IMG/VR virus record: IMGVR_UViG_3300003322_000810
Span: 1 to 46,286 of that record
Origin: a virus
Length of the DNA: 46,286 bases
Strand: one strand, 5' to 3'
The notes under the pieces were generated by a model. The model was given only the letters and a program-made list of their open reading frames with translations, was not told the DNA's origin and ran no database searches. Position numbers and translations under genes: made by a program. Each line of letters starts with the position of its first letter. Position 1 is the first letter of the stretch. This document shows, one piece after another, positions 190-44,028 of the stretch.

Positions 190-846
190 GTGGTTGGAAT
201 AATTTACATTGTCCGCAACCGTGAAAACGGCAGAATTTATATAGGCCAAACAACGAAGTCACTCCTCATACGCCAGCGGCAGCATGAGAGTGAGGGACGA
301 AAAACAAATCCAAGCGGTTTACTTGATGCTGCAATAGGACAGTTCGGAGAAGATGCTTTCGATTGGGAAGTTATAGACCGCGCCAATTCCTTCGCTGAAC
401 TGAACGAAAAGGAACGGTGGTGGATCCGGTTCTTTAACTCGACGGTTCCTGAGTTTGGGTATAACACCAGGCACGGCGGATATCGAGAACGGCAGGAAGG
501 ACCACTTTGTTACCGTGAGAACCCGACGCCATCAAGTATTTATGCATATTGGTTAACCCCAGAGGAATTCAAAAACAGACCAAACCATAATTTCATAATC
601 CATAAGGATAGCGGACTTCTTTTTTGGGATGAAGAGACAGCTGCCCGATCGGTAAATAGAAATATCGAATGGGTTCGTGGAAAACTCTCTTACCGATCCG
701 AATGGGATATTTACAATTATGTTGACCCTGAGCATTACCGAAACGTAAGCAAAAGACTCATCGAAAGAAGTGAGCAGCGTCTTTCTAAGATTGATGAGCT
801 AATAAAAAATAGAGACAAAAAAAGGCAAGCCCATGACTCTGAATGA
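190..846 (+). CDS. Free-standing GIY-YIG homing endonuclease
   Basis: The N-terminus (residues 3-20) carries the GIY-YIG signature: GIIY, about ten residues, then IYIG. It is followed by an Arg-containing helix, a conserved LNEKE segment near residue 75 (likely metal-binding Glu) and an FGYN motif near 92. The family cuts a target allele so that its own gene is copied in. The C-terminal half (residues 110-218) is unrecognised and probably binds DNA. The GTG start at 190 coincides with the predicted transcription start. The gene is AT-rich compared with most of the window and overlaps the small terminase gene by 14 bases, a common neighbourhood for phage homing genes. Function as a homing enzyme is inferred. 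Confidence 0.85.
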   Translation: MVGIIYIVRNRENGRIYIGQTTKSLLIRQRQHESEGRKTNPSGLLDAAIGQFGEDAFDWEVIDRANSFAELNEKERWWIRFFNSTVPEFGYNTRHGGYRERQEGPLCYRENPTPSSIYAYWLTPEEFKNRPNHNFIIHKDSGLLFWDEETAARSVNRNIEWVRGKLSYRSEWDIYNYVDPEHYRNVSKRLIERSEQRLSKIDELIKNRDKKRQAHDSE

Positions 847-1453
847 AATTGCCGCCGCCGCCGGTGTCTCAAAAATGGCTGTATCAAAGAAAAACTTACC
901 GCATATAAAAAATCCAAATGGTACACTTTATTTCGATCCTGAAAACATTGATGTCAAAAACTATATAAATCGAACGACAAGAAACCGAGAAGTCGCTCGA
1001 CGTAATAAAGGGTCTTTAATAAAAAAAACAAAAACAACTACCATTAGATCCCAAACAGAAAAAAAGACAACTGATAATTACGCATCTGGCGAAGATGAAG
1101 ATTATCGGAATATGATTCTAAAAAATAAGAAACTTGAACTCGACATTGGTAAAACCCGCGGTGATCTTATCCCCGTCACCCTCGTAGAGCGCTGGATCAA
1201 ACACCTGTTCGACGCCGACACCACCGCACTCAAAGTCATCGCCGACCGCATCGGCAGTAACGTCGCGATGCTCGCCCGCGGTGCCGAGGACGAGGCAACG
1301 GCAGGCAACCTCGTGCGTAATCTCATCAACGACGAAATGTCCCGCGTCCTCGCCGGCATAAAGCGTGTCCAAAAAGATTTCAAGAAATCCATAGAGCCCG
1401 GTTTGTTCGACCGGGTCGAGACCGTAGACGAGTCAGAGCAGGAGGCGGTATGA
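833..1453 (+). CDS. Terminase small subunit
   Basis: A Nu1-like protein of 206 residues. Residues 2-20 (LNEIAAAAGVSKMAVS) form a helix-turn-helix that should bind the packaging site. A Lys/Thr-rich linker follows, then a helical C-terminal part (from about residue 95) ending with an acidic tail that would contact the large subunit. Position immediately ahead of the large terminase, with only the J-domain gene between, supports the call. Codon use changes sharply: the first 95 codons are AT-rich with A-runs, while from about base 1140 the gene has the GC-rich style of the structural genes. This suggests that the DNA-binding half was acquired with the adjacent homing gene. Confidence 0.8.
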   Translation: MTLNEIAAAAGVSKMAVSKKNLPHIKNPNGTLYFDPENIDVKNYINRTTRNREVARRNKGSLIKKTKTTTIRSQTEKKTTDNYASGEDEDYRNMILKNKKLELDIGKTRGDLIPVTLVERWIKHLFDADTTALKVIADRIGSNVAMLARGAEDEATAGNLVRNLINDEMSRVLAGIKRVQKDFKKSIEPGLFDRVETVDESEQEAV

Positions 1454-2073
1454 ATCCGTATGAAGTCCTCGGTGTTGACCGAACGGCGAACGACGACTGG
1501 ATCAAGAAAGCGTACCGCGACCTATCAAAAGTCCATCACCCCGACAAAGGCGGCGACCCCAAACAATTCGATCTCATAACCAAGGCGTATAACATCCTCA
1601 TCGACCCCGAACGCCGTGCCCGCTACGACGCCACCGGAGAGACCGAGAACAAACCAGATCCCATAGAGACCGCCGCTCGCCAACAGTTCTTCGCCATGTG
1701 CGAGGAGCTATTCTTCAAAAACGGCAGTGTGAATTTTACGGAAAACATGAAGGCGTTCAAACAGCAGTCACAAGCTCACCTCGACAAACAACGCGCCGAC
1801 AACGAACGAACCAGGACCCGCGCTGAGGAAGCCCGAGAGCGCATCAAAAAATCGCCAGCCGAAAATGACCTGCTCGGTGGACTCATTCAACAAAAGCTTG
1901 ATGAATGCGCGCGAGCCGAAGTAAACATCGACCAAGCACAAAAGATATTTGACCGCGCCTATGAGTTGTGGGCCGAGTACGAGATTGACGACTCGAAGGC
2001 GCCAGTGCGGCAATATATGCAGCAGGGCATGATTTTTGTTGGTGGGTCGACCACGGCCACGGGTGGATTTTGA
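1450..2073 (+). CDS. J-domain (DnaJ-like) co-chaperone protein
   Basis: Residues 1-65 are a canonical J domain: the start NPYEVLGVD, the basic helix II, the HPD motif at residues 30-32, then helix III and the RRARYD end. The HPD loop stimulates the ATPase of host DnaK. The remainder (about 70-207) is highly charged and helical, probably coiled coil, with no zinc-finger or client-binding domain of DnaJ. The start overlaps the small terminase stop (ATGA) and the stop overlaps the TTG start of the large terminase, so the three genes are translationally coupled. I infer that it recruits DnaK to terminase or capsid assembly; the client is unknown. Confidence 0.85.
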   Translation: MNPYEVLGVDRTANDDWIKKAYRDLSKVHHPDKGGDPKQFDLITKAYNILIDPERRARYDATGETENKPDPIETAARQQFFAMCEELFFKNGSVNFTENMKAFKQQSQAHLDKQRADNERTRTRAEEARERIKKSPAENDLLGGLIQQKLDECARAEVNIDQAQKIFDRAYELWAEYEIDDSKAPVRQYMQQGMIFVGGSTTATGGF

Positions 2074-16015: not shown

Positions 16016-17605
16016 ATGCCCATAACCCCCAGCTCTCTCGCGGCAGGTGTCGCGGCAGGCGTAACCAACGTCCAGTTTACCCCGAGCGCGCAGGTACTCG
16101 CCCGTAACCTCTTGGTCATCGGCACCGGTCTACCCGCAAGCTATACCGCCAACAATATCGTGGTCGCCGTCCCGCAGCTTATCACGAGCCCCGCTCAGGC
16201 AAACGCGCTGTATGGTGCAGGCTCCATGCTCGCACGCCTCATCGCCGCGGCCTTCGTTGGCACCAACGGCGCGGTACCGATTTACGCATTCCCCGAGACC
16301 GAGAACTCCGCCATTGCAAATGGCGTCATCACGTTCACAGCGTCGTCCCCGGCAGCTGGCAGCCTCAATATCTATATCGCGGGAACCCGGTATACCATCA
16401 CGACCGAAACTACCGACACCCCAACGACCTTATCGAGCAAGGCCCAGGCTCTCATAAACGCCGACCCGAACTCGCCGGTTATCGCCGCCGGGACTACCAC
16501 CCTCACGCTCGCGGCCAAGTCCAAAGGCATATGGGGGAATTTCATCAGTTTGGCCATCGCAAGCCAGCCCGGAGATACACTCCCGTCCGGCATCGGTGGA
16601 TCGGTCACAACTCCGATGGCATCCGGCGCGGGTGTTCCATCGGCATTCGCCACCGACCTGTCAAACGGTCTCGGCTCAGGATCGAATCAAAACCTGCTCC
16701 CCAACGGTCAGCAGGTTACCGACATAGTGCATGGCTACATGCAAGACTCGACCGTTATGGCCGCACTGTCGACCTACAACGGCGTCGCCAACGGTTTCAC
16801 CGGCAACTACGACCGCATCGTGGGCCGCCCCTTCCGTGTCCTCATGGGTGACACAACCACATCGAGCCAGCCATCAACCCTGCTCGCCACCGCGACCGCA
16901 AACATGACCGACCGCACTAACGGTATCGTAGCCGTTCCCGGATCACTCACGCACCCGGCAGAAATCGCGGCCGTAGCGATCGGCGTCATGGCGCGCATCA
17001 ACGCTACCCGCGCCGAGCAGAATTATGTCAACGAGGTTCTCTCGGGCGTTGATCCTGGATATGCCGCCAAGCAGGCCGGTACCCGATGGACCGACGACTA
17101 CTCGGTGCGCAACACCGCGGTATCAGGTGGCATCAGCCCGACGGTTGCGCAAGGCTCCGTCGTCAAACTGCAAAACGTGGTCACGTTCTACGCGGCCAAT
17201 ACCGGCGTTGCCGCGACCTCGAACGCATACCGGGAAATGGTAAACATCTCCAAAATGCAAAATATGATTTCGGCCACGAAGCTGAATTTCCAGTCCGAGA
17301 AGTGGCAGGGCTACACCATCGTGGGCGATGTGGCGAACGTGACGAACATCAACAGCCGCCAGAAGGCCCGCGATACCGGGTCTGTCGTTGATGACCTCGT
17401 GGCACTTGCCTATGCCTTCGCCGCAAACGCCTGGATTTACACACCCGATTTTACTATCGATGCGCTCAAGGCAGGCACCGCCGTACAGGTTCGAACCGGT
17501 GGCGACGGGTTTACGATCCAGTTGCCCGCAATCCTCTCGGGAGTCGGCAATATCATCGACGCAACTCTCAACCTCGATATCAGCCTCGCGGTGCTGAGTA
17601 ACTAA
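16016..17605 (+). CDS. Tail sheath protein (Mu gpL-like)
   Basis: 529 residues. The N-terminal NLLVIGTGLP, insertion domain rich in Thr/Ser (about 100-220), a middle domain with GRPFRVLMGD, and a conserved C-terminal region (NARQ-like NINSRQKARDTG, TIDALKAGTAVQVR) follow the Mu-type sheath pattern. It polymerises around the tube and contracts at infection. Strong GGAGG site and GC-rich codons suggest high expression. Its presence fixes the phage as a myovirus. Confidence 0.88.
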   Translation: MPITPSSLAAGVAAGVTNVQFTPSAQVLARNLLVIGTGLPASYTANNIVVAVPQLITSPAQANALYGAGSMLARLIAAAFVGTNGAVPIYAFPETENSAIANGVITFTASSPAAGSLNIYIAGTRYTITTETTDTPTTLSSKAQALINADPNSPVIAAGTTTLTLAAKSKGIWGNFISLAIASQPGDTLPSGIGGSVTTPMASGAGVPSAFATDLSNGLGSGSNQNLLPNGQQVTDIVHGYMQDSTVMAALSTYNGVANGFTGNYDRIVGRPFRVLMGDTTTSSQPSTLLATATANMTDRTNGIVAVPGSLTHPAEIAAVAIGVMARINATRAEQNYVNEVLSGVDPGYAAKQAGTRWTDDYSVRNTAVSGGISPTVAQGSVVKLQNVVTFYAANTGVAATSNAYREMVNISKMQNMISATKLNFQSEKWQGYTIVGDVANVTNINSRQKARDTGSVVDDLVALAYAFAANAWIYTPDFTIDALKAGTAVQVRTGGDGFTIQLPAILSGVGNIIDATLNLDISLAVLSN

Positions 17606-17617
17606 GGAGACGCTTAA

Positions 17618-18001
17618 ATGGCACGAGACACCAGCGGATCAATCATCCGCGTCAGCATAAACGGCGTATCATACGACGCCCTGTCCGACGCCGACTTTGG
17701 CGTTACCCCATCTCGATGGAAAAACGAGGCTGTCGCAACGTCTGGCCGCGCGATCCGCAAACGCACCCGTCAGGTCGAGGACGTCAAGAGCGTGACCATC
17801 GCCTGTAATGGCGACGAGCGCGTGGCACTCAAGTCCTACGCCGAGAATCAAATCGACGTGACTCTGTCGTACACCACGGCAGCAGGCGACACATATCGAG
17901 CGCAAGGCTGGATCGACTTCGAGACCTGGAACAACCAGGACAACAAAGCGACTCTGACCATGTTCCCGCGTCAAACATGGGATTCGTTCATCGCAGCTTA
18001 A
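17618..18001 (+). CDS. Tail tube protein (Mu gpM-like)
   Basis: 127 residues, the length of Mu gpM (118). The order of beta segments (SIIRVSINGVSYDA, KSVTIACNGDERVAL, NQIDVTLSYTTAAGDTYRAQG) fits tube proteins that stack as hexameric rings inside the sheath. It directly follows the sheath gene as in Mu. A tRNA gene begins 4 bases after its stop. Confidence 0.85.
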   Translation: MARDTSGSIIRVSINGVSYDALSDADFGVTPSRWKNEAVATSGRAIRKRTRQVEDVKSVTIACNGDERVALKSYAENQIDVTLSYTTAAGDTYRAQGWIDFETWNNQDNKATLTMFPRQTWDSFIAA

Positions 18002-18005
18002 TAAT

Positions 18006-18078
18006 CGCGGGGTAGATTAGTTGGCAAATCACCGGACTCATAATCCGGAATTCGCGGGTTCGAGTCCCGCCCCCGCAA
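18006..18078 (+). tRNA. tRNA-Met(CAT) with initiator features
   Basis: A 73-base cloverleaf. Acceptor CGCGGGG pairs with CCCCGCA leaving the C1:A72 mismatch. D stem GATT/AATC has A11:U24. The anticodon arm is CCGGA-CTCATAA-TCCGG, and the T arm is GCGGG-TTCGAGT-CCCGC. C1:A72 and A11:U24 are hallmarks of bacterial initiator tRNA. Of the three G:C pairs that mark initiators, 29:41 and 30:40 are present, but 31:39 is A:U. CCA is not encoded. The gene sits inside the tail operon, between tube and chaperone genes, and could be cut from the late mRNA. Methionine and tRNA-Ile2 (CAT modified) are the alternatives. Confidence 0.88.
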
Positions 18079-18209
18079 AACCCGGTTCACTCCGGCGCAT
18101 GGCACTGTAGAGAAAAGGCCCGAGCAGCAATCGTTAACTGTTGTGGCAGCCGGAAAATTAGACAGGCCACGGCACCCGCGCGAGCGGTTCATCGATAAAA
18201 GGAGTTTGT
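18079..18209 (+). other. Non-coding spacer after the tRNA
   Basis: 131 bases with no plausible gene. Short self-complementary pieces are visible (CCGG at 18082 with CCGG at 18092, GTGGC near 18142 with GCCAC near 18164). AAAAGGAG before the next ATG is the ribosome site for the chaperone gene. It may serve as the 3' trailer of the tRNA. Confidence 0.4.
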
Positions 18210-18647
18210 ATGGGTAAGTTTTCGCTCACCGGTGCCGAGTATAAAATCTCGGAAGAAACTGCAATCAAGCAGGTCAAAGAATTTTTGGAGTACTACGGTA
18301 AAGATCCCGACGAGGGCGATAAAGACAAACAGAAGTCCGTCGAGTCCATGCTAAATCGGATAGTCAAATACATCCGTCAAGGTTTTGTAGAGATTCGTCC
18401 CGACATGACCATCTACCAAAAAATCCAGCGACCCACCGCCGGAAGCACCGCGAGCGACATTACCTATCGAAAATTCAAAGGCTCCGACATCATCGAGAGC
18501 GAGGGCACCGACGAGACCAAGTTTGGCGAGCGTATCAATAATCTCTTGGGCCGTCTGTCCGGACTCGACCCATCCGTATTCGCCAAGGTGCTTGAGCCTA
18601 TCGACTCAAAAGTCAGTGAGGCAATCGGCGTCCTTTTTTTTCTGTAA
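18210..18647 (+). CDS. Tail assembly chaperone, short form
   Basis: 145 residues, acidic and helical, between tube and tape measure genes, where contractile and siphophage tails encode their chaperone pair (gpG/gpGT in lambda, gp41 region in Mu). The protein ends right after a run of eight T (18634-18641) with FFL and a stop, while the -1 frame stays open for 60 more codons. It likely coats the tape measure protein before tail assembly. Confidence 0.8.
   Translation: MGKFSLTGAEYKISEETAIKQVKEFLEYYGKDPDEGDKDKQKSVESMLNRIVKYIRQGFVEIRPDMTIYQKIQRPTAGSTASDITYRKFKGSDIIESEGTDETKFGERINNLLGRLSGLDPSVFAKVLEPIDSKVSEAIGVLFFL
18634..18644 (+). other. Programmed -1 ribosomal frameshift site
   Basis: Eight consecutive T followed by CTG and the zero-frame stop (18645-18647). 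Slippage by one base at TTTTTTT would continue reading as TCT GTA AGG and onward to the stop at 18823, making a 204-residue fusion. The location in the tail chaperone gene is the classic place for this event. Confidence 0.8.
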
Positions 18648-23494: not shown

Positions 23495-23594
23495 AAAACC
23501 GAGGCGCGAGGATTGATTTGGAGACTGTTTTATGAGCAAAGCCATATACTCGGATGCCCTAAATATAGTGTCGCCTCAAAATCGTTTTAAACGC

Positions 23595-23681
23595 CTTTGT
23601 AAATCTATACAAAGCAACAACTTACATAAACAAGTCAAATTGACATGTTATTCGCATAACGACTACGCTATAGGTAGCGTA
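23595..23681. promoter_or_regulatory. AT-rich control region with three inverted repeats
   Basis: Three perfect inverted repeats follow in close order: CTTTGTA/TACAAAG (23595-23614), GTTAT/ATAAC (23647-23660) and TACGCTA/TAGCGTA (23664-23681, loop of 4). They lie between the gp45-like and gp46-like genes, immediately before a predicted leaderless promoter. They could be operators or RNA hairpins. The 216 bases from 23495 to 23710 hold no convincing gene. Confidence 0.5.
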
Positions 23682-23695
23682 CCTACTACGAAATG

Positions 23696-23704
23696 TGGTA
23701 TATT
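23696..23704 (+). promoter_or_regulatory. Extended -10 promoter, predicted leaderless
   Basis: TGG plus TATATT (23699-23704); six bases later the ATG at 23711. No clear -35 box and no ribosome site. The same TGTGGTATATT string stands at the same distance from the ATG at 32042. Confidence 0.5.
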
Positions 23705-30404: not shown

Positions 30405-30881
30405 TTACCGAATCCGGTGATATAATTGAGCTTGCTCAATCAACTCGTCGAATGTGTAATATTGTCTCGCTGGCGTAAACAACTTTGGCATTATCGCAAA
30501 GATTGCCCACTGCGGACTGATCCATTTGTTGTCGTACTCCGTGAGCATGTGCCCAAAATCGCTGCCGTCGGAGTTTATCGGATCGGCAGACGCAAGACTT
30601 GTCACAACAAGCACAGCCCTGCTATCATATCCACGCGCTCTCAACGCACTGATAAATAACATTGCCGCATCCTCACAGTCCCCGGCGCCGCGACTCATTG
30701 TCTCCGATGGCAATTGCCAGTAATCTTTTCCAGGATCATCAGCGACATACTTGATGTTATCGTGTATGAACTGAATCGCCTCGGTCGGCTCGCCTAAATC
30801 GATGATTTCCGCGTCCGGCTGGATGAGCGAACACCCAGCAAGTAGCAAAAATTCCAAAACGCATATGATGCATTTATACAT
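30405..30881 (-). CDS. Lipoprotein with transglutaminase-like (cysteine peptidase) domain
   Basis: 158 residues. The N-terminal signal ends in the lipobox LAGC (Cys17), so the protein should be a lipid-anchored envelope protein. The catalytic set of the transglutaminase/BTLCP fold is visible: Cys69 in RGAGDCEDAAM, His111 in DFGHML and Asp116. A strong GGAGG lies before the ATG. Lipid-anchored phage proteins often block superinfecting phages or act on the wall; which one applies here is inference. Confidence 0.75.
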   Translation of the reverse strand: MYKCIICVLEFLLLAGCSLIQPDAEIIDLGEPTEAIQFIHDNIKYVADDPGKDYWQLPSETMSRGAGDCEDAAMLFISALRARGYDSRAVLVVTSLASADPINSDGSDFGHMLTEYDNKWISPQWAIFAIMPKLFTPARQYYTFDELIEQAQLYHRIR

Positions 30882-32773: not shown

Positions 32774-34533
32774 ACCGCATCCCTCTTATGCGCTCGCAGC
32801 GCATCGATTTGATACTTCGCCCATTGAGGTTTATACCCCAGTTGGCGAGCTATTTCATACAGCAATGGGGCTTGTACCGCCATCGCTTTCATTTCCTCAG
32901 TGAGCCGGTAGTATACCCACATCGGCTTTCGACCCAGTTCCTTCGCGATCCGCAGCAAGTCCCCAATCGGTCCCGGCTCGATCTTTCCGGCCTTCAATCC
33001 CGCAACCGCGAGGTCGGTCGCTTTACCGATGCCATCCTGCACCTCTCGCTTCTCCTCGGGTGCCAGGTCGTTGAACTTTACCGGTGCCTTGATTTCCTTG
33101 AGCTTCGCCGTCTCGTCGACTTCAAGCTCCTCGCGGCCCTCTTTCAGCTCGCCACCGTTTTTAACGCAGCCCGACCGGCACGCCTTATTCACGCAGACCT
33201 CATAGTCATTAAACGGGCATGAGGCCACGAGAAATTCCTCGGTTTGTTTCTTTTTCTTTTGGCGCGGACGGCCCTCGAAGTTCCATTGCACGTCATCGAG
33301 GAAAAAGAGCGGGATGCCAGGGTAATCGTCGATTTGGTGGTATTTCACGAGGTTGACGTGATCGAAGAATACGGCGTTTGTTTTACCTGGAAATGTTCGG
33401 AGTAATCGACCAACTTTTTGGAAATAAATGTTTCTGGATTGAGTCGGCCGCAGACTCGCTCCATATTCAAGATTTGGGATATCGACGCCATAAATGACCA
33501 AATCGCAGTTGCACACCCCGTCTATTTTTTCCTGCTCCAGAGCGGTCAATGCTTTCTCTCTCTGATCTTTCGGCATGTTCCCCCAAACCGGGATGAAATG
33601 AAAACCAGCCTCATTGAAATGGCGAGCAGTCTCCTTGGCAGATTTCACCGATCGGCAGAATATCAACGCGGGCTTATTAGGATTCTGCCCAGGTCGTGGA
33701 TCCGGACGGCGCCCATGTTTCTGATAATATTTCACGACGTCACCATAGACCTTGCGCTTTTCGAGGAAGTCGTCAAGCTCCTCCTCGTCGATCTCGCCGG
33801 CGCGCCAATGCAGTTTGTCGAGTCCGTTTATGGGAGGAGCGAAATACCTCAGTGGCGCCAGAAATTCCCGTTCTACCATCCATGGGATCGATGGGCCGTA
33901 TACAATATCCCCATAAATTCCACCAATGTTTTTTTCAAAAATCTCAGAAGAAAATCCAAGTTCATCGCCTGAATTTTCTGATATTATTCTTCGTCTAACC
34001 GGTTCTTTGCATGAATCAAATTCTCGCTTATCAATTTGAATCCAATTTTCCTTGAGGCCGGTCCCATCAGTTCTTTCCGGCGTCGCAGTGAAGCCAATTA
34101 TTCGAGTTGTATCTGGTATTTTTTCAAAAAGCTTTTGCTGAAAATCGAAATTCAGGTGAGCCTCGTCGATAATAATAAGGTCGGGCCAATTCTTTATACG
34201 ATCCCACCGACGGTCGAGTGTCTGTTTTGACACAACATGAACATTGAATGCGCGAGACTCATTTTGACCCGATGAAATGAAGGCATGATTCACACCATGC
34301 TTCGTAAGCTTTTTTCCTGCCTGCTTTCTGATTTCATCTCTCGGGACAATAATCCAAACGCGATTATTCTTCATGTTGCGCTTGTTTGATTCAATGACCA
34401 TATTTACTATTCTGGAGAAAATTTCAGTTTTTCCACCACCGGTAACGAGCTGAACCATAAACGCTCGGTGTTTTCTTATGCCATCGCGTGCGGCAGGAAC
34501 AAGTTCATTCTGGTAATCTCTAAGTTGAGGCAT
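32770..34533 (-). CDS. Superfamily 2 DNA/RNA helicase
   Basis: 587 residues. Motif I TGGGKTE (31-37), motif II DEAH (123-126), motif III TAT (149-151) and a C-terminal RecA-like domain with YGVDIPNL and QKVGRLLR (motif VI) are clear. A Cys cluster near 445-465 (CPFNDYEVCVNKACRSGC) may bind zinc. The C-terminal 120 residues include helix-turn-helix-like repeats. It probably remodels forks or recombination intermediates, like UvsW. Codon use is AT-rich up to about residue 200 and GC-rich afterwards. Its start lies within the end of the GIY-YIG gene. Confidence 0.88.
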   Translation of the reverse strand: MPQLRDYQNELVPAARDGIRKHRAFMVQLVTGGGKTEIFSRIVNMVIESNKRNMKNNRVWIIVPRDEIRKQAGKKLTKHGVNHAFISSGQNESRAFNVHVVSKQTLDRRWDRIKNWPDLIIIDEAHLNFDFQQKLFEKIPDTTRIIGFTATPERTDGTGLKENWIQIDKREFDSCKEPVRRRIISENSGDELGFSSEIFEKNIGGIYGDIVYGPSIPWMVEREFLAPLRYFAPPINGLDKLHWRAGEIDEEELDDFLEKRKVYGDVVKYYQKHGRRPDPRPGQNPNKPALIFCRSVKSAKETARHFNEAGFHFIPVWGNMPKDQREKALTALEQEKIDGVCNCDLVIYGVDIPNLEYGASLRPTQSRNIYFQKVGRLLRTFPGKTNAVFFDHVNLVKYHQIDDYPGIPLFFLDDVQWNFEGRPRQKKKKQTEEFLVASCPFNDYEVCVNKACRSGCVKNGGELKEGREELEVDETAKLKEIKAPVKFNDLAPEEKREVQDGIGKATDLAVAGLKAGKIEPGPIGDLLRIAKELGRKPMWVYYRLTEEMKAMAVQAPLLYEIARQLGYKPQWAKYQIDALRAHKRDAV

Positions 34534-35320
34534 TGATATGTCTCCATGTTCTATTCATTTTTATGCTATAGACAATTGATTTTGAGACAGAATATTTTCG
34601 CTCTATATCACATGGTCGCATACCGGCTTTTAAATCAATTTTTATCCCACGAGCAATATCCGAGGTAATTTTCGCTGTTGGGCAGAGTTCACCGATAAAT
34701 CGACCTTTTCGGGCATCGCTCATTTTTTTCCGGGATTCATCTGTTCTTTTTGATCCGAGATTTGCCTGACGGGTTTTCTCGATGGATTCCGGCTTCCATT
34801 TTCGTCCGAGCATTTTTTGACGTCGTTTTTCTACTACTTCGGGTGGATGCTTCTTTCCGGTTAGAGATTTCCGCATTCTCTCGATGGATTCAGTAGGTTT
34901 CTTTTTCCCACGCTGCGAAAGGCTCATTTTCAATCTTGTCTCACTCGACCGCTTTTTACCGAAATTCGGGTTCTTGAATCCGGTATTGATCTCGGATAAT
35001 TTCTTCTTGGTTTCATCATTTAATTTTGTGGAATCGCCGCCGGTGGTGAGATTATAGCCAAATTCTTTCTTATTCGTTTTCAGCCTATCAATCCAAAACG
35101 ACTCCTTTTTATTCAAATCATCAGCCGTTTCCGCACGGTCAATTACTTCCCATTCGAATGCCTCAACGCCATATTTGCGAATTGCAGCGTGAAAGTAGCT
35201 TGTGCTTTTATATAAATTCGCTTTTCTCTCATGATCCAACCTCCTGAGATGGAGGGATTGAATTGTCTGGCCAATGTAGATTTTACCATTCCCGGTATTT
35301 GTCGCTTTGTAAATTATCAC
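34520..35320 (-). CDS. Free-standing GIY-YIG homing endonuclease with NUMOD repeats
   Basis: 266 residues. MIIYKATNTGNGKIYIGQT is the GIY-YIG core, followed by the LNKKESFWI helix (metal-binding Glu) and FGYNLTTGG. Residues 105-215 carry several NUMOD3-like repeats (ETRLKMSLSQRGKKKP, RMRKSLTGKKHP, KTRQANLGSKRT). A C-terminal helix-turn-helix (CDIERKYSVSKSIVYSIK) completes the Seg-like layout. GTG start fused to a strong promoter with no ribosome site. AT-rich; overlaps the helicase start by 14 bases. Confidence 0.9.
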   Translation of the reverse strand: MIIYKATNTGNGKIYIGQTIQSLHLRRLDHERKANLYKSTSYFHAAIRKYGVEAFEWEVIDRAETADDLNKKESFWIDRLKTNKKEFGYNLTTGGDSTKLNDETKKKLSEINTGFKNPNFGKKRSSETRLKMSLSQRGKKKPTESIERMRKSLTGKKHPPEVVEKRRQKMLGRKWKPESIEKTRQANLGSKRTDESRKKMSDARKGRFIGELCPTAKITSDIARGIKIDLKAGMRPCDIERKYSVSKSIVYSIKMNRTWRHINAST

Positions 35321-40202: not shown

Positions 40203-40342
40203 GAGAGACGGCCGGATTTGAACCAGCGACCTTCCGACAAATAGCCTCAACGCGCCTCGACACTGGACATGCACTGACCCCACGTCGACCGGCCCCAGCG
40301 TCTACTTTTTTCATCGGTGCTCTACCACTGAGCTACGTCTCT
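40203..40342 (-). other. tRNA-like element with an enlarged anticodon arm
   Basis: Minus strand, 140 bases. Acceptor AGAGACG pairs perfectly with CGTCTCT. U8 is present. The D arm is GCTC-AGTGGTA-GAGC and the T arm is GCTGG-TTCAAAT-CCGGC, both canonical. CCGAT and GTCGG can form an anticodon stem, but 74 bases replace the 7-base loop, so about 67 extra bases are inserted and no U33 is obvious. The insert itself can fold (TCGAC with GTCGA). It is either an intron-like tRNA, a decayed tRNA or an RNA mimic in the leader of the primase gene. Confidence 0.65.
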
Positions 40343-40906: not shown

Positions 40907-41752
40907 TCAGAATATATCCATCTGGCCGTCGCCTGTGGATCCGGCCTCGGGTTGCTCGGTGACCTGCTCGTGCTCGATGATTTCGGCTTGCTTCATCTGC
41001 ACGGCTTCTTTGATTTCGGAGGGCTCGGTACCCTTCTGATTGACCGGGGCATCGGTTTCTTGGCTCAGCTCGTCGTCGAGTTCGACCGCCTTTTGGACCT
41101 TCGGGCCGAGGTAGACCGATTTCAACAGGGCCTTGAGGACGGTTTTTTCCGCCATGCCGTTGAAATTGGTATTCCAGGCCGATTTCCCGCTCGACAGGCC
41201 CTTGGCGTATTTTTGCTTATGGGCTTCGATCTGCGATTTGTCCATGTATTTGATGACGCAGCGATACGATCCCGCCATAACAAGGGCTGCGAAATACGCG
41301 ACGGGCTCTCCACGGGCAGATAGTGCCGGCGAGAACTCGTACTCGTCGCCGCGACTTGTCTTTTTGATGGTAAGCACGTCTTTGGCGTATACGGTCTCAG
41401 CATGGATGAAGTCGACTTTACCGGTCTCGTGAGCCAAATCGATGATGCCGTTTTTCATGGGCCAGTACTCGACCTTTCCGTTGATCGGAACCAGGGCGGC
41501 TTTGCCCTCTTGGGGATTAAGGCTGAGGCCGGTCGATGCTGCGCGCTGCAATGCCCGCATGAGGCTGATTTTTCCCGCGTCGGTTGTGAGGCACGCACGG
41601 AGGTCTGGATTTTCCAGAACGCACAGTGCCGCAGTCTTAATGAGGGCCGGCGCTCGCCGGGCATCGTCCATGAAGAATGCGACCTCGTCGGTCCATTTTG
41701 CGAGTGTGCCGCGAACGTCTTTGTCCGTGACGGCGATTGCGTTATCGGGCAT
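40907..41752 (-). CDS. recT: RecT-family single-strand annealing protein
   Basis: 281 residues. The conserved RecT core is visible: LMRALQRAASTGLSLNPQEGKAALVP (residues about 65-90), YFAALVMAGSYRCVIKYMDKSQI, and WNTNFNGMAEKTVLKALLK. The C-terminus is acidic and variable, as usual. It anneals single strands made by the exonuclease encoded upstream (42274-43323). Start overlaps the Nmad5-like gene by 11 bases. Confidence 0.92.
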   Translation of the reverse strand: MPDNAIAVTDKDVRGTLAKWTDEVAFFMDDARRAPALIKTAALCVLENPDLRACLTTDAGKISLMRALQRAASTGLSLNPQEGKAALVPINGKVEYWPMKNGIIDLAHETGKVDFIHAETVYAKDVLTIKKTSRGDEYEFSPALSARGEPVAYFAALVMAGSYRCVIKYMDKSQIEAHKQKYAKGLSSGKSAWNTNFNGMAEKTVLKALLKSVYLGPKVQKAVELDDELSQETDAPVNQKGTEPSEIKEAVQMKQAEIIEHEQVTEQPEAGSTGDGQMDIF

Positions 41753-42257
41753 TCTGAGACCCCTTGATTATGTCGCGCGCCTTGTTGATTGTTTCGATAG
41801 CCACAACCGAATTGCCGACAATTTCCGATTCTTGCGGAACGAGGTCGACCAGTTCGGGCATGACTTCAAGTAATTTCTTTGTCGTCGTGCAGGATGCAAG
41901 TACTTGAGATATGGTTCTTTTTTCTTCTTGCCATGCCTCATTTATAGCGTTGTACTTTGCCGTCAAGTCCTTGTTTTCTTCCAAAGTTCTCGAATAGCCG
42001 TCTTTTGAGCAATACGCCTTTGAAAGCCTTATTTGGGGATTTTGTCCGTTGGTGTTATACATTCTGACTGTCTGTATACTGTAGACGAAGGGGGTAAACC
42101 GTTCAGGAACCTCCGAGTATGGAATATCACCACGACTTTTAAATAGCTTGTCGGCGTAAGCCGTCGCCTCTTTATCGAAAACCGCGAAACGTGGTGTTTG
42201 CAGTTTCTTTTCAATACGTTCGAGAATTCCTTCTCGAATCGAGTTCGTCAATCTCAT
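41742..42257 (-). CDS. Nmad5-like nucleotide-modification-associated protein
   Basis: 171 residues from ATG 42257 with GGAGGT 7 bases upstream (a start at 42293 is less likely). MRLTNSIREGILERI, the FVYSIQTVRMYN segment and the C-terminal pattern recall the family named nucleotide modification associated domain 5. That family is often found with phage DNA-modification genes. No catalytic role is established. It lies between the exonuclease and RecT genes. Confidence 0.6.
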   Translation of the reverse strand: MRLTNSIREGILERIEKKLQTPRFAVFDKEATAYADKLFKSRGDIPYSEVPERFTPFVYSIQTVRMYNTNGQNPQIRLSKAYCSKDGYSRTLEENKDLTAKYNAINEAWQEEKRTISQVLASCTTTKKLLEVMPELVDLVPQESEIVGNSVVAIETINKARDIIKGSQNAR

Positions 42258-42273
42258 TTCCAGCACCTCCATG

Positions 42274-43323
42274 CTATCGAAACGTTTTCCCATTCCACGT
42301 GGCCAATTTACGGCCGTCGGAACTTAAGATGATTGTCTTCTCTCGCGAGTCGTCGTCGACCTGCGCGTCTTGTGCCCGCGCCCAGTTTAGGATATCAACC
42401 TTGAGTTGGTCTTTGCGTTTGGACAGCGGTCCTTTGCCACCTATTTCGTCGGTTATGGCGTTTCGCTCGGCTATCCATGCCGCTATTTGATCGGTCGCGA
42501 TTAGCGTGCCAACCGGTGCCGGGAATGCTCGGGCGACGTCCTCGGGTGTCTCAGGACTTGGCTCGGCATCACCCTCGATATGGTCGCGCCAGAACTTTCG
42601 GTATGACTCAAGCATGGCCTCTTGGGCGGAAATGTCGGCGGGGATGATGTATTGGTGGAAGAAGCCCATTTGAGAAAGAATGCGCGCCCAATCGTAAGTA
42701 GTAGACAGAAATTGCCATTCATCGTCAACTCTTCTATTGAGACACCATTCTTCGGTTTGATCTGTCGGGCCATGGCTCAGATGACCAAGTATTATTCCCG
42801 ATTCCTCCCACCGATCGGGCATCTCCGGAAACACCAAGACGCTCAAAATCGTTTGCTCCGCGCCTGATACCAGCATGTCATGCTGCGCCTGTATGGCGTA
42901 TGACTGTGGCACCGCGGCGGTTCCCGGTTCGCCCCATTTGTTGCGGAATGAGATGGCGTTTGTGGTTTTGCCGTTGTGGAGTTTTGTGGGATAGCCCTCG
43001 TCTGATTCGACGGAAAATGCGCCATCAATATGAGCGGTCAGTGACGCGCCCTCCATTGGAGATTGATAGAAGTGTTCGCGACCTACGATTGACTGTCCAC
43101 TTTTCTGCTCCGCAAGGTGAATCACCGCGTCCTCGAAGGCCAGTCCCCAGCGCGTTGAGGCATTGCCCTCGAATACAGGCATTATGTACCCGCGTTTGGC
43201 GTTAAAACCGGGCTCGCGCTCCTCTTTGATCTGTTGCCAGACCTCGAAGCGGCTTACGAACTCGGAGAGGCCGAGGACCGCGGCGGCTCGGGAGCCGGAG
43301 ATGCCCTTCGGTTGACTACCCAC
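42274..43323 (-). CDS. YqaJ-like recombination exonuclease
   Basis: 349 residues. The opening GISGSRAAAVLGLSEFVS, the helix GLAFEDAVIH (metal-binding Glu), TAHIDGAF (Asp) and the QSYAIQAQHDM helix are typical of YqaJ nucleases, which resect double-strand ends for RecT. The usual E-x-K motif reads NGK here (in KLHNGKTTNA), so the second acidic ligand may be missing or moved. Upstream and coupled to the Nmad5 and RecT genes. Confidence 0.85.
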   Translation of the reverse strand: MGSQPKGISGSRAAAVLGLSEFVSRFEVWQQIKEEREPGFNAKRGYIMPVFEGNASTRWGLAFEDAVIHLAEQKSGQSIVGREHFYQSPMEGASLTAHIDGAFSVESDEGYPTKLHNGKTTNAISFRNKWGEPGTAAVPQSYAIQAQHDMLVSGAEQTILSVLVFPEMPDRWEESGIILGHLSHGPTDQTEEWCLNRRVDDEWQFLSTTYDWARILSQMGFFHQYIIPADISAQEAMLESYRKFWRDHIEGDAEPSPETPEDVARAFPAPVGTLIATDQIAAWIAERNAITDEIGGKGPLSKRKDQLKVDILNWARAQDAQVDDDSREKTIILSSDGRKLATWNGKTFR

Positions 43324-43923: not shown

Positions 43924-43941
43924 ACAAGCTCCTTTTCGAAC

Positions 43942-44022
43942 TGGATGGTGTAGGATTTGAACCCGCTAACCCGTGAGGGGCCTGATCTACAATCAGGTGC
44001 ATTACCACTCTGCCAACCATCC
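43942..44022 (-). tRNA. tRNA-Tyr(GTA)
   Basis: 81 bases on the minus strand. Acceptor GGATGGT/ACCATCC is a perfect 7-bp match. Anticodon arm CCTGA-TTGTAGA-TCAGG reads GTA. A long variable arm (CCCC/GGG) as in bacterial class II tRNA-Tyr is present. T arm GCGGG-TTCAAAT-CCTAC has one mismatch and one wobble. Discriminator A; CCA not encoded. Confidence 0.85.
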
Positions 44023-44028
44023 AAGAAA

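What the first reader, a model, noticed from the sequence alone, without database searches (positions are those of the whole stretch)
18006..18078. Phage-encoded initiator-like tRNA inside the tail operon
The tRNA(CAT) has C1:A72 and A11:U24, plus G:C pairs at 29:41 and 30:40, all marks of bacterial initiator tRNA. The third diagnostic pair (31:39) is A:U. Phage tRNAs are usually elongators. An initiator-like tRNA made late could bias initiation, for example on leaderless messages. It is placed 4 bases after the tube gene and must be cut from the late transcript.
Basis: partly seen in the sequence, partly recalled or inferred. Interest (0 to 1): 0.75.

Follow-up and report, generated by a model that had tools for sequence, protein, structure and literature searches.

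The report
Phage-borne variant initiator tRNA
A soil phage carries, right behind its tail-tube gene, a transfer RNA that looks like the one bacteria use to start proteins; such tRNAs turn out to be common in phages, but this one has a change in its anticodon stem that was seen repeatedly in phages and in no cellular chromosome searched.

Summary
It starts 4 nt after the tail-tube stop and encodes no CCA. Two related soil phage contigs carry it at the same spot with a compensatory 6:67 change, so it is under selection. The acceptor stem, A73 and anticodon loop equal E. coli tRNA-fMet, and every formylation determinant checked is present. Best reading: a working initiator-type tRNA made from the late tail transcript. 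Outside the acceptor its body scores midway between initiators and elongators. The claim that this is rare fails: a truncated scan found at least 119 viral contigs with initiator-like tRNAs, and named phages carry them, one annotated tRNA-fMet. The leaderless-mRNA idea has no support. The unusual part is the third stem pair. The A31:U39 initiator variant occurs in 12 viral contigs of several lineages, but in only one of 84,980 genomes, and that hit is a phage contig. The ribosome reads pairs 29:41 and 30:40, which are kept. The altered pair borders the bond (38/39) cut by VapC toxins. Nuclease evasion is therefore plausible but untested. New variant of a known kind.

The parts
18006..18078 (+). 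initiator-type tRNA-Met(CAU), C1xA72, A11:U24, G29:C41, G30:C40, A31:U39, no encoded CCA
   Evidence: ARAGORN; Rfam; parse; determinants
17618..18001 (+). tail tube gene; its stop codon lies 4 nt upstream of the tRNA
   Evidence: phrog_4699, E 1.1e-6
16016..17605 (+). tail sheath gene, first gene of the local tail block
   Evidence: phrog_165, E 1.1e-48
18079..18209 (+). 131-nt spacer after the tRNA, not conserved with L003/L004 (spacer about 38 nt there); carries a small CCGG...CCGG hairpin
   Evidence: alignment; fold
18210..18647 (+). phrog_4648 protein (unknown function, between tube and tape measure), with Shine-Dalgarno AAAGGAG
   Evidence: sequence

Best explanation
The element is a functional phage-encoded initiator-type tRNA-Met. 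It is transcribed within the late sheath-tube-tape-measure message, cut out by host RNase P and 3' processing enzymes, given CCA by the host nucleotidyltransferase, charged by MetRS, formylated because C1xA72, G2:C71, C3:G70 and A11:U24 are present, and used in the ribosomal P site to add to the fMet-tRNA pool when tail and head genes are expressed at their highest. The pairs gripped by 16S G1338/A1339 (29:41 and 30:40) are kept, so the altered 31:39 pair should be tolerated. Shown: sequence, pairs, conserved position, compensatory change, initiator-like acceptor stem. Inferred: transcription unit, processing, charging, formylation and use.
For: Acceptor stem 14/14, A73 and anticodon loop 7/7 identical to E. 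coli fMet; formylation determinants present (determinants listed in PMC7949028). Conserved at the same site in L003/L004 with no broken pair and one two-sided change at 6:67, while the spacer beside it is not conserved. Ribosomal A-minor contacts are at 29:41 and 30:40 (PMC11497404). Initiator-like tRNAs recur in unrelated phages, several downstream of terL in Bradleyvirinae or relatives, which argues that they are useful.
Against: The third conserved GC pair is lost. Outside the acceptor stem the body scores -4.8 bits, between initiators (median +31.2, 5% point 6.7) and elongators (median -35.7, 95% point -14.9). No expression data, no known host, no own promoter found. More distant relatives with the same gene order lack it, so it is not essential to the tail module.
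Confidence: 0.58

Rival explanations
1. It is an initiator tRNA altered to survive host anticodon nucleases. VapC-type toxins that cut host tRNA-fMet between A38 and C39 would spare a tRNA with U39 and an A31:U39 pair, so the phage could keep initiating after host initiator tRNA is destroyed. This adds a selective reason to the main explanation rather than excluding it.
For: VapC cuts tRNA-fMet at A38/C39 (PMC4105405) and other VapCs deplete tRNA-fMet (PMC8522696). The A31:U39 initiator variant is in 12 IMG/VR contigs of several unrelated phage types and in 1 of 84,980 genomes, that one being a phage contig in a Nocardia assembly whose other three initiator-like matches are GGG/CCC. Among distinct viral initiator-like tRNAs with G29:C41 and G30:C40, 19 of 86 depart from G31:C39, against 0 of 48 cellular matches in sampled Actinomycetota (Fisher p 1.4e-4). 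Phage tRNA evasion of nucleases has been proposed for elongators (PMC10264068).
Against: The anticodon loop itself, where known escape changes lie, is unchanged. Which residues VapC needs is not established here; no host or nuclease is known. Any standard pair other than G:C at 31:39 must change C39, so the change alone does not show nuclease selection; relaxed selection in phages would also do it. PMC10264068 reports that phages generally avoid encoding tRNA-fMet.
Confidence: 0.2
2. A hybrid Met tRNA that acts partly or mainly in elongation: an elongator-like body with an initiator acceptor stem.
For: The body scores between initiator and elongator sets. RiverRider and RHph_X66 carry C1xA72 with the same GGA/UCC stem but U11:A24 or C11:G24. 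When formylation is low, tRNA-fMet can work in elongation despite C1xA72 (PMC7949028).
Against: A11:U24 and all other formylation determinants are kept in the window; C1xA72 disfavours EF-Tu use (established knowledge of tRNA-fMet).
Confidence: 0.12
3. Operon punctuation: the tRNA's main value is its position, where RNase P cutting and its stable fold separate the abundant sheath-tube message from the tape-measure message.
For: In relatives without the tRNA the same junction holds a hairpin: L124 (-10.0 kcal/mol, U-run), L126 (-13.2), L127 (-26.3, U-run). The tRNA starts 4-5 nt after the tube stop in all three carriers.
Against: The window has other structured gaps, so the fold alone is not special; a hairpin would do the job without keeping initiator determinants and C1xA72 while the tube protein diverged by 20%.
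Confidence: 0.07
4. A relic or attachment site picked up from a host chromosome.
For: Phages often integrate at tRNA genes (established knowledge).
Against: No second copy or partial repeat in the window; no integrase among the proteins searched; kept intact with a compensatory change in relatives; the GGA/UCC variant was not found in cellular chromosomes.
Confidence: 0.03

Closest known systems
Bacterial initiator tRNA-fMet (E. coli metZWV)
   Same: C1xA72, G2:C71, C3:G70, G4:C69, A73, A11:U24, G29:C41, G30:C40, loop CUCAUAA
   Different: A31:U39 instead of G31:C39, D stem GAUU/AAUC, A9, A26, no encoded CCA
Phage tRNA-fMet/tRNA-Met of Stenotrophomonas phage QDWS359, Pseudomonas phage PaMx74, Variovorax phage VBv52, Xanthomonas phage DoCa5
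   Same: C1xA72 and A11:U24 in a phage genome
   Different: in QDWS359, PaMx74 and DoCa5 the tRNA lies just after terL; CCA encoded in all four; stems GGG/CCC, GGG/UCC or UGG/CCA; loops with U32
Xanthomonas phage RiverRider and Rhizobium phage RHph_X66 tRNA-Met
   Same: C1xA72 with the GGA/UCC anticodon stem
   Different: U11:A24 or C11:G24, CCA encoded, next to other tRNA genes
Mycoplasma initiator tRNAs (AU/GC/GU stem, PMC10568206)
   Same: cellular initiators that lack the full set of three GC pairs
   Different: different pairs changed, and in a cell whose translation machinery co-evolved
Phage tRNAs proposed to resist anticodon nucleases (PMC10264068)
   Same: phage tRNA altered next to a known nuclease cut
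   Different: those have anticodon-loop changes in elongators; here the loop is unchanged and the stem pair next to it differs

Membership tests
Bacterial initiator tRNA | unpaired 1:72 (C1xA72 in E. coli) | tested here: met
   C1, A72 in window, L003, L004
Bacterial initiator tRNA | formylation determinants G2:C71, C3:G70, A11:U24 and A73 | tested here: met
   list from PMC7949028 plus A73 from established knowledge
Bacterial initiator tRNA | three GC pairs 29:41, 30:40, 31:39 | tested here: not met
   two of three; 31:39 is A:U. The pairs contacted by 16S rRNA (29:41, 30:40) are kept
Bacterial initiator tRNA | initiator-type body outside the acceptor stem | tested here: inconclusive
   log-odds -4.8, between the two classes
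Bacterial initiator tRNA | formylated and used in the P site | not testable with these tools
   needs biochemistry
Elongator tRNA-Met | paired 1:72 | tested here: not met
   C1xA72; 38/60 identity to E. coli metT/U
tRNA-Ile2 (CAU, lysidine) | paired 1:72 and acceptor pairs as in ileX/ileY (C4:G69, C5:G68) | tested here: not met
   window has C1xA72, G4:C69, G5:C68; 37/60 identity
Anticodon-nuclease-resistant phage tRNA | change at the cut site that blocks cleavage | tested here: inconclusive
   base 39, 3' of the VapC cut, is U instead of C; loop unchanged; cleavage untested

The most novel reading that the evidence does not exclude
Phages of several unrelated lineages have independently replaced the third GC pair of an initiator tRNA (31:39) while keeping the two pairs the ribosome grips, giving initiator tRNAs that still start translation but escape toxins that cut host initiator tRNA at 38/39.
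Probability: 0.17. Interest if true: 0.78.

Novelty: new variant of a known kind. Interest (0 to 1): 0.45.

Why it matters
The library papers found here say little about initiator tRNAs in phages, and one states that phages generally avoid them (PMC10264068, for the enteric cases it examined). The data here show that initiator-like tRNAs are widespread in viral contigs and that the third GC pair is altered in them at a rate not seen in the cellular initiators sampled. If these tRNAs initiate, they are natural tests of which initiator features the ribosome needs; if they resist VapC, they link translation initiation to phage-host conflict.

Tried and rejected
Host by prophage: the sheath alignment found no relative in genome contigs; the tube protein has no match in the phage records. 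Elongator Met and Ile2 identity: rejected on 1:72 and the acceptor pairs. Attachment site or relic: no repeat and no integrase seen. Leaderless-message bias: flanking genes have Shine-Dalgarno sequences. Rarity of phage initiator tRNAs: rejected. A survey of Pseudomonadota initiators was not possible, because the genome search accepts only genome handles as a centre, so the cellular sample for 31:39 in general is Actinomycetota only; the A31:U39 count itself is over all 84,980 genomes. An early suspicion that the 31:39 changes single out base 39 was dropped: every standard pair other than G:C changes base 39. Relatives of the odd tRNA-like sequence at 40203-40342 were not found.

Full report
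Observation. The window is a myophage genome fragment (G000, a virus record of 47,285 bases) with large terminase, portal, protease, major head protein, sheath, tube, tape measure and baseplate genes. At 18006-18078 (+) lies a tRNA-Met(CAU) found by ARAGORN and Rfam (66.9 bits). It starts 4 nt after the tail-tube stop codon. CCA is not encoded.

It is not a chance fold. Two soil viral contigs, L003 and L004 (80% identical tube protein, 90% identical sheath), carry the tRNA at the same place, 5 and 4 nt after the tube stop. Between window and relatives the stems differ only at 6:67, G:C against C:G, a two-sided compensatory change; the other differences are in the D loop, base 26 and the T loop. 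The spacer downstream has diverged in length and sequence. The gene is therefore maintained.

Identity. Against the E. coli set, the window tRNA shares 45 of 60 structural positions with tRNA-fMet, 38 with elongator Met and 37 with Ile2; the acceptor stem (14/14), A73 and the anticodon loop (7/7) equal tRNA-fMet. Formylation determinants listed in PMC7949028 are present. A test that ignores the acceptor stem places the body between initiators and elongators: -4.8, with initiator median +31.2 and elongator median -35.7 (the training labels were the 1:72 state, and most of the initiator set was found with a pattern that starts CGCGG). So the head of the molecule is that of an initiator, the anticodon stem nearly so, and the D arm is unusual. 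I file it as an initiator-type variant, not as a canonical tRNA-fMet, because one defining pair is not met.

How common this is. Some may be host flanks or prophage attachment sites, which I did not separate. Named phages include QDWS359 (annotated tRNA-fMet), and PaMx74, DoCa5 and the Janthinobacterium phage Donnerlittchen with an initiator-like or Met tRNA just after terL.

What is unusual. The initiator body with G29 G30 A31/U39 C40 C41 was searched in 84,980 genomes of all phyla: one match, an 11.7-kb contig in a Nocardia assembly that is also an IMG/VR record; the three other initiator-like matches in that assembly are GGG/CCC. The same pattern gives 12 IMG/VR contigs of several unrelated kinds: the window's relatives, contigs with 21-37 tRNA genes, and others. 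In a less selective viral sample 19 of 86 distinct initiator-like tRNAs with G29:C41 and G30:C40 lack G31:C39, against none of 48 cellular matches in a sample of Actinomycetota (Fisher p 1.4e-4); in a larger Actinomycetota sample none of 198 other genomes had a base other than G at 31. The cellular sample is one phylum, so only the A31:U39 count is free of that bias. Known cellular exceptions exist, such as AU/GC/GU in mycoplasmas (PMC10568206), but with other pairs.

Meaning of the change. The 16S bases G1338 and A1339 contact pairs 29:41 and 30:40 (PMC11497404), both kept; 31:39 is not among those contacts. VapC toxins cut tRNA-fMet between A38 and C39 (PMC4105405), so 31:39 is the pair beside the cut. 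Two readings remain: relaxed selection at a pair that matters less to a phage, or selection for nuclease escape. The anticodon-loop changes described for phage elongator tRNAs (PMC10264068) are absent here. I give the nuclease reading about one in five.

Position. Relatives with about 52-58% identical sheath (L124-L127) keep the order sheath-tube-(small gene)-tape measure but have no tRNA there, and the two long records (44 kb each) have none at all. In L124, L126 and L127 the same junction holds a hairpin, with a U-run in two. The tRNA thus stands at a spot where this virus group tends to have an RNA structure, possibly separating the abundant tube message from the scarce tape-measure message. 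Other gaps in the window are also structured, so this is a suggestion only.

Mechanism. Most likely the tRNA is cut from the late message, completed with CCA, charged with Met, formylated and used in initiation, adding to the fMet-tRNA pool late in infection. Transcription, processing, charging and use are inferred; host, expression and need are unknown. The leaderless-message idea is not supported: both flanking genes have Shine-Dalgarno sequences.

Noticed in passing
window 40203-40342 (-): Full tRNA match (Rfam 44.5 bits) with an extended anticodon arm, about 76 extra nt that form a long hairpin instead of a normal anticodon loop; ARAGORN does not call it. Found in no IMG/VR contig by one pattern and in no phage record. 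Intron-bearing tRNA, tRNA-like RNA or relic.
   Followed up: partly
window 43941-44023 (-): A tRNA-Tyr(GTA) near the right end of the window, on the strand of the replication and recombination genes.
   Followed up: no
L124:5968-6036, L126:8128-8175, L127:8317-8390: Relatives without the tRNA hold a hairpin directly after the tail-tube stop, two with a U-run.
   Followed up: partly
L218:2501-2573, L219:2501-2573, L227:1656-1728: PaMx74, QDWS359 and DoCa5 phages carry an initiator-like tRNA just after terL; it is unannotated in PaMx74 and DoCa5.
   Followed up: partly
window 23543-23704 and L003:2435-2596: A 164-nt stretch 69.5% identical between different genome positions of the window and of L003, possibly a moved segment.
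   Followed up: no
window 190-846 (+) and 34520-35320 (-): Two likely mobile endonucleases: a GIY-YIG domain protein (Pfam) and a homing-endonuclease match (PHROGs).
   Followed up: no
window 1450-2073 (+), 30405-30881 (-), 41742-42293 (-): DnaJ-domain protein beside the terminase, a transglutaminase-like protein and an Nmad5 nucleotide-modification-associated protein.
   Followed up: no
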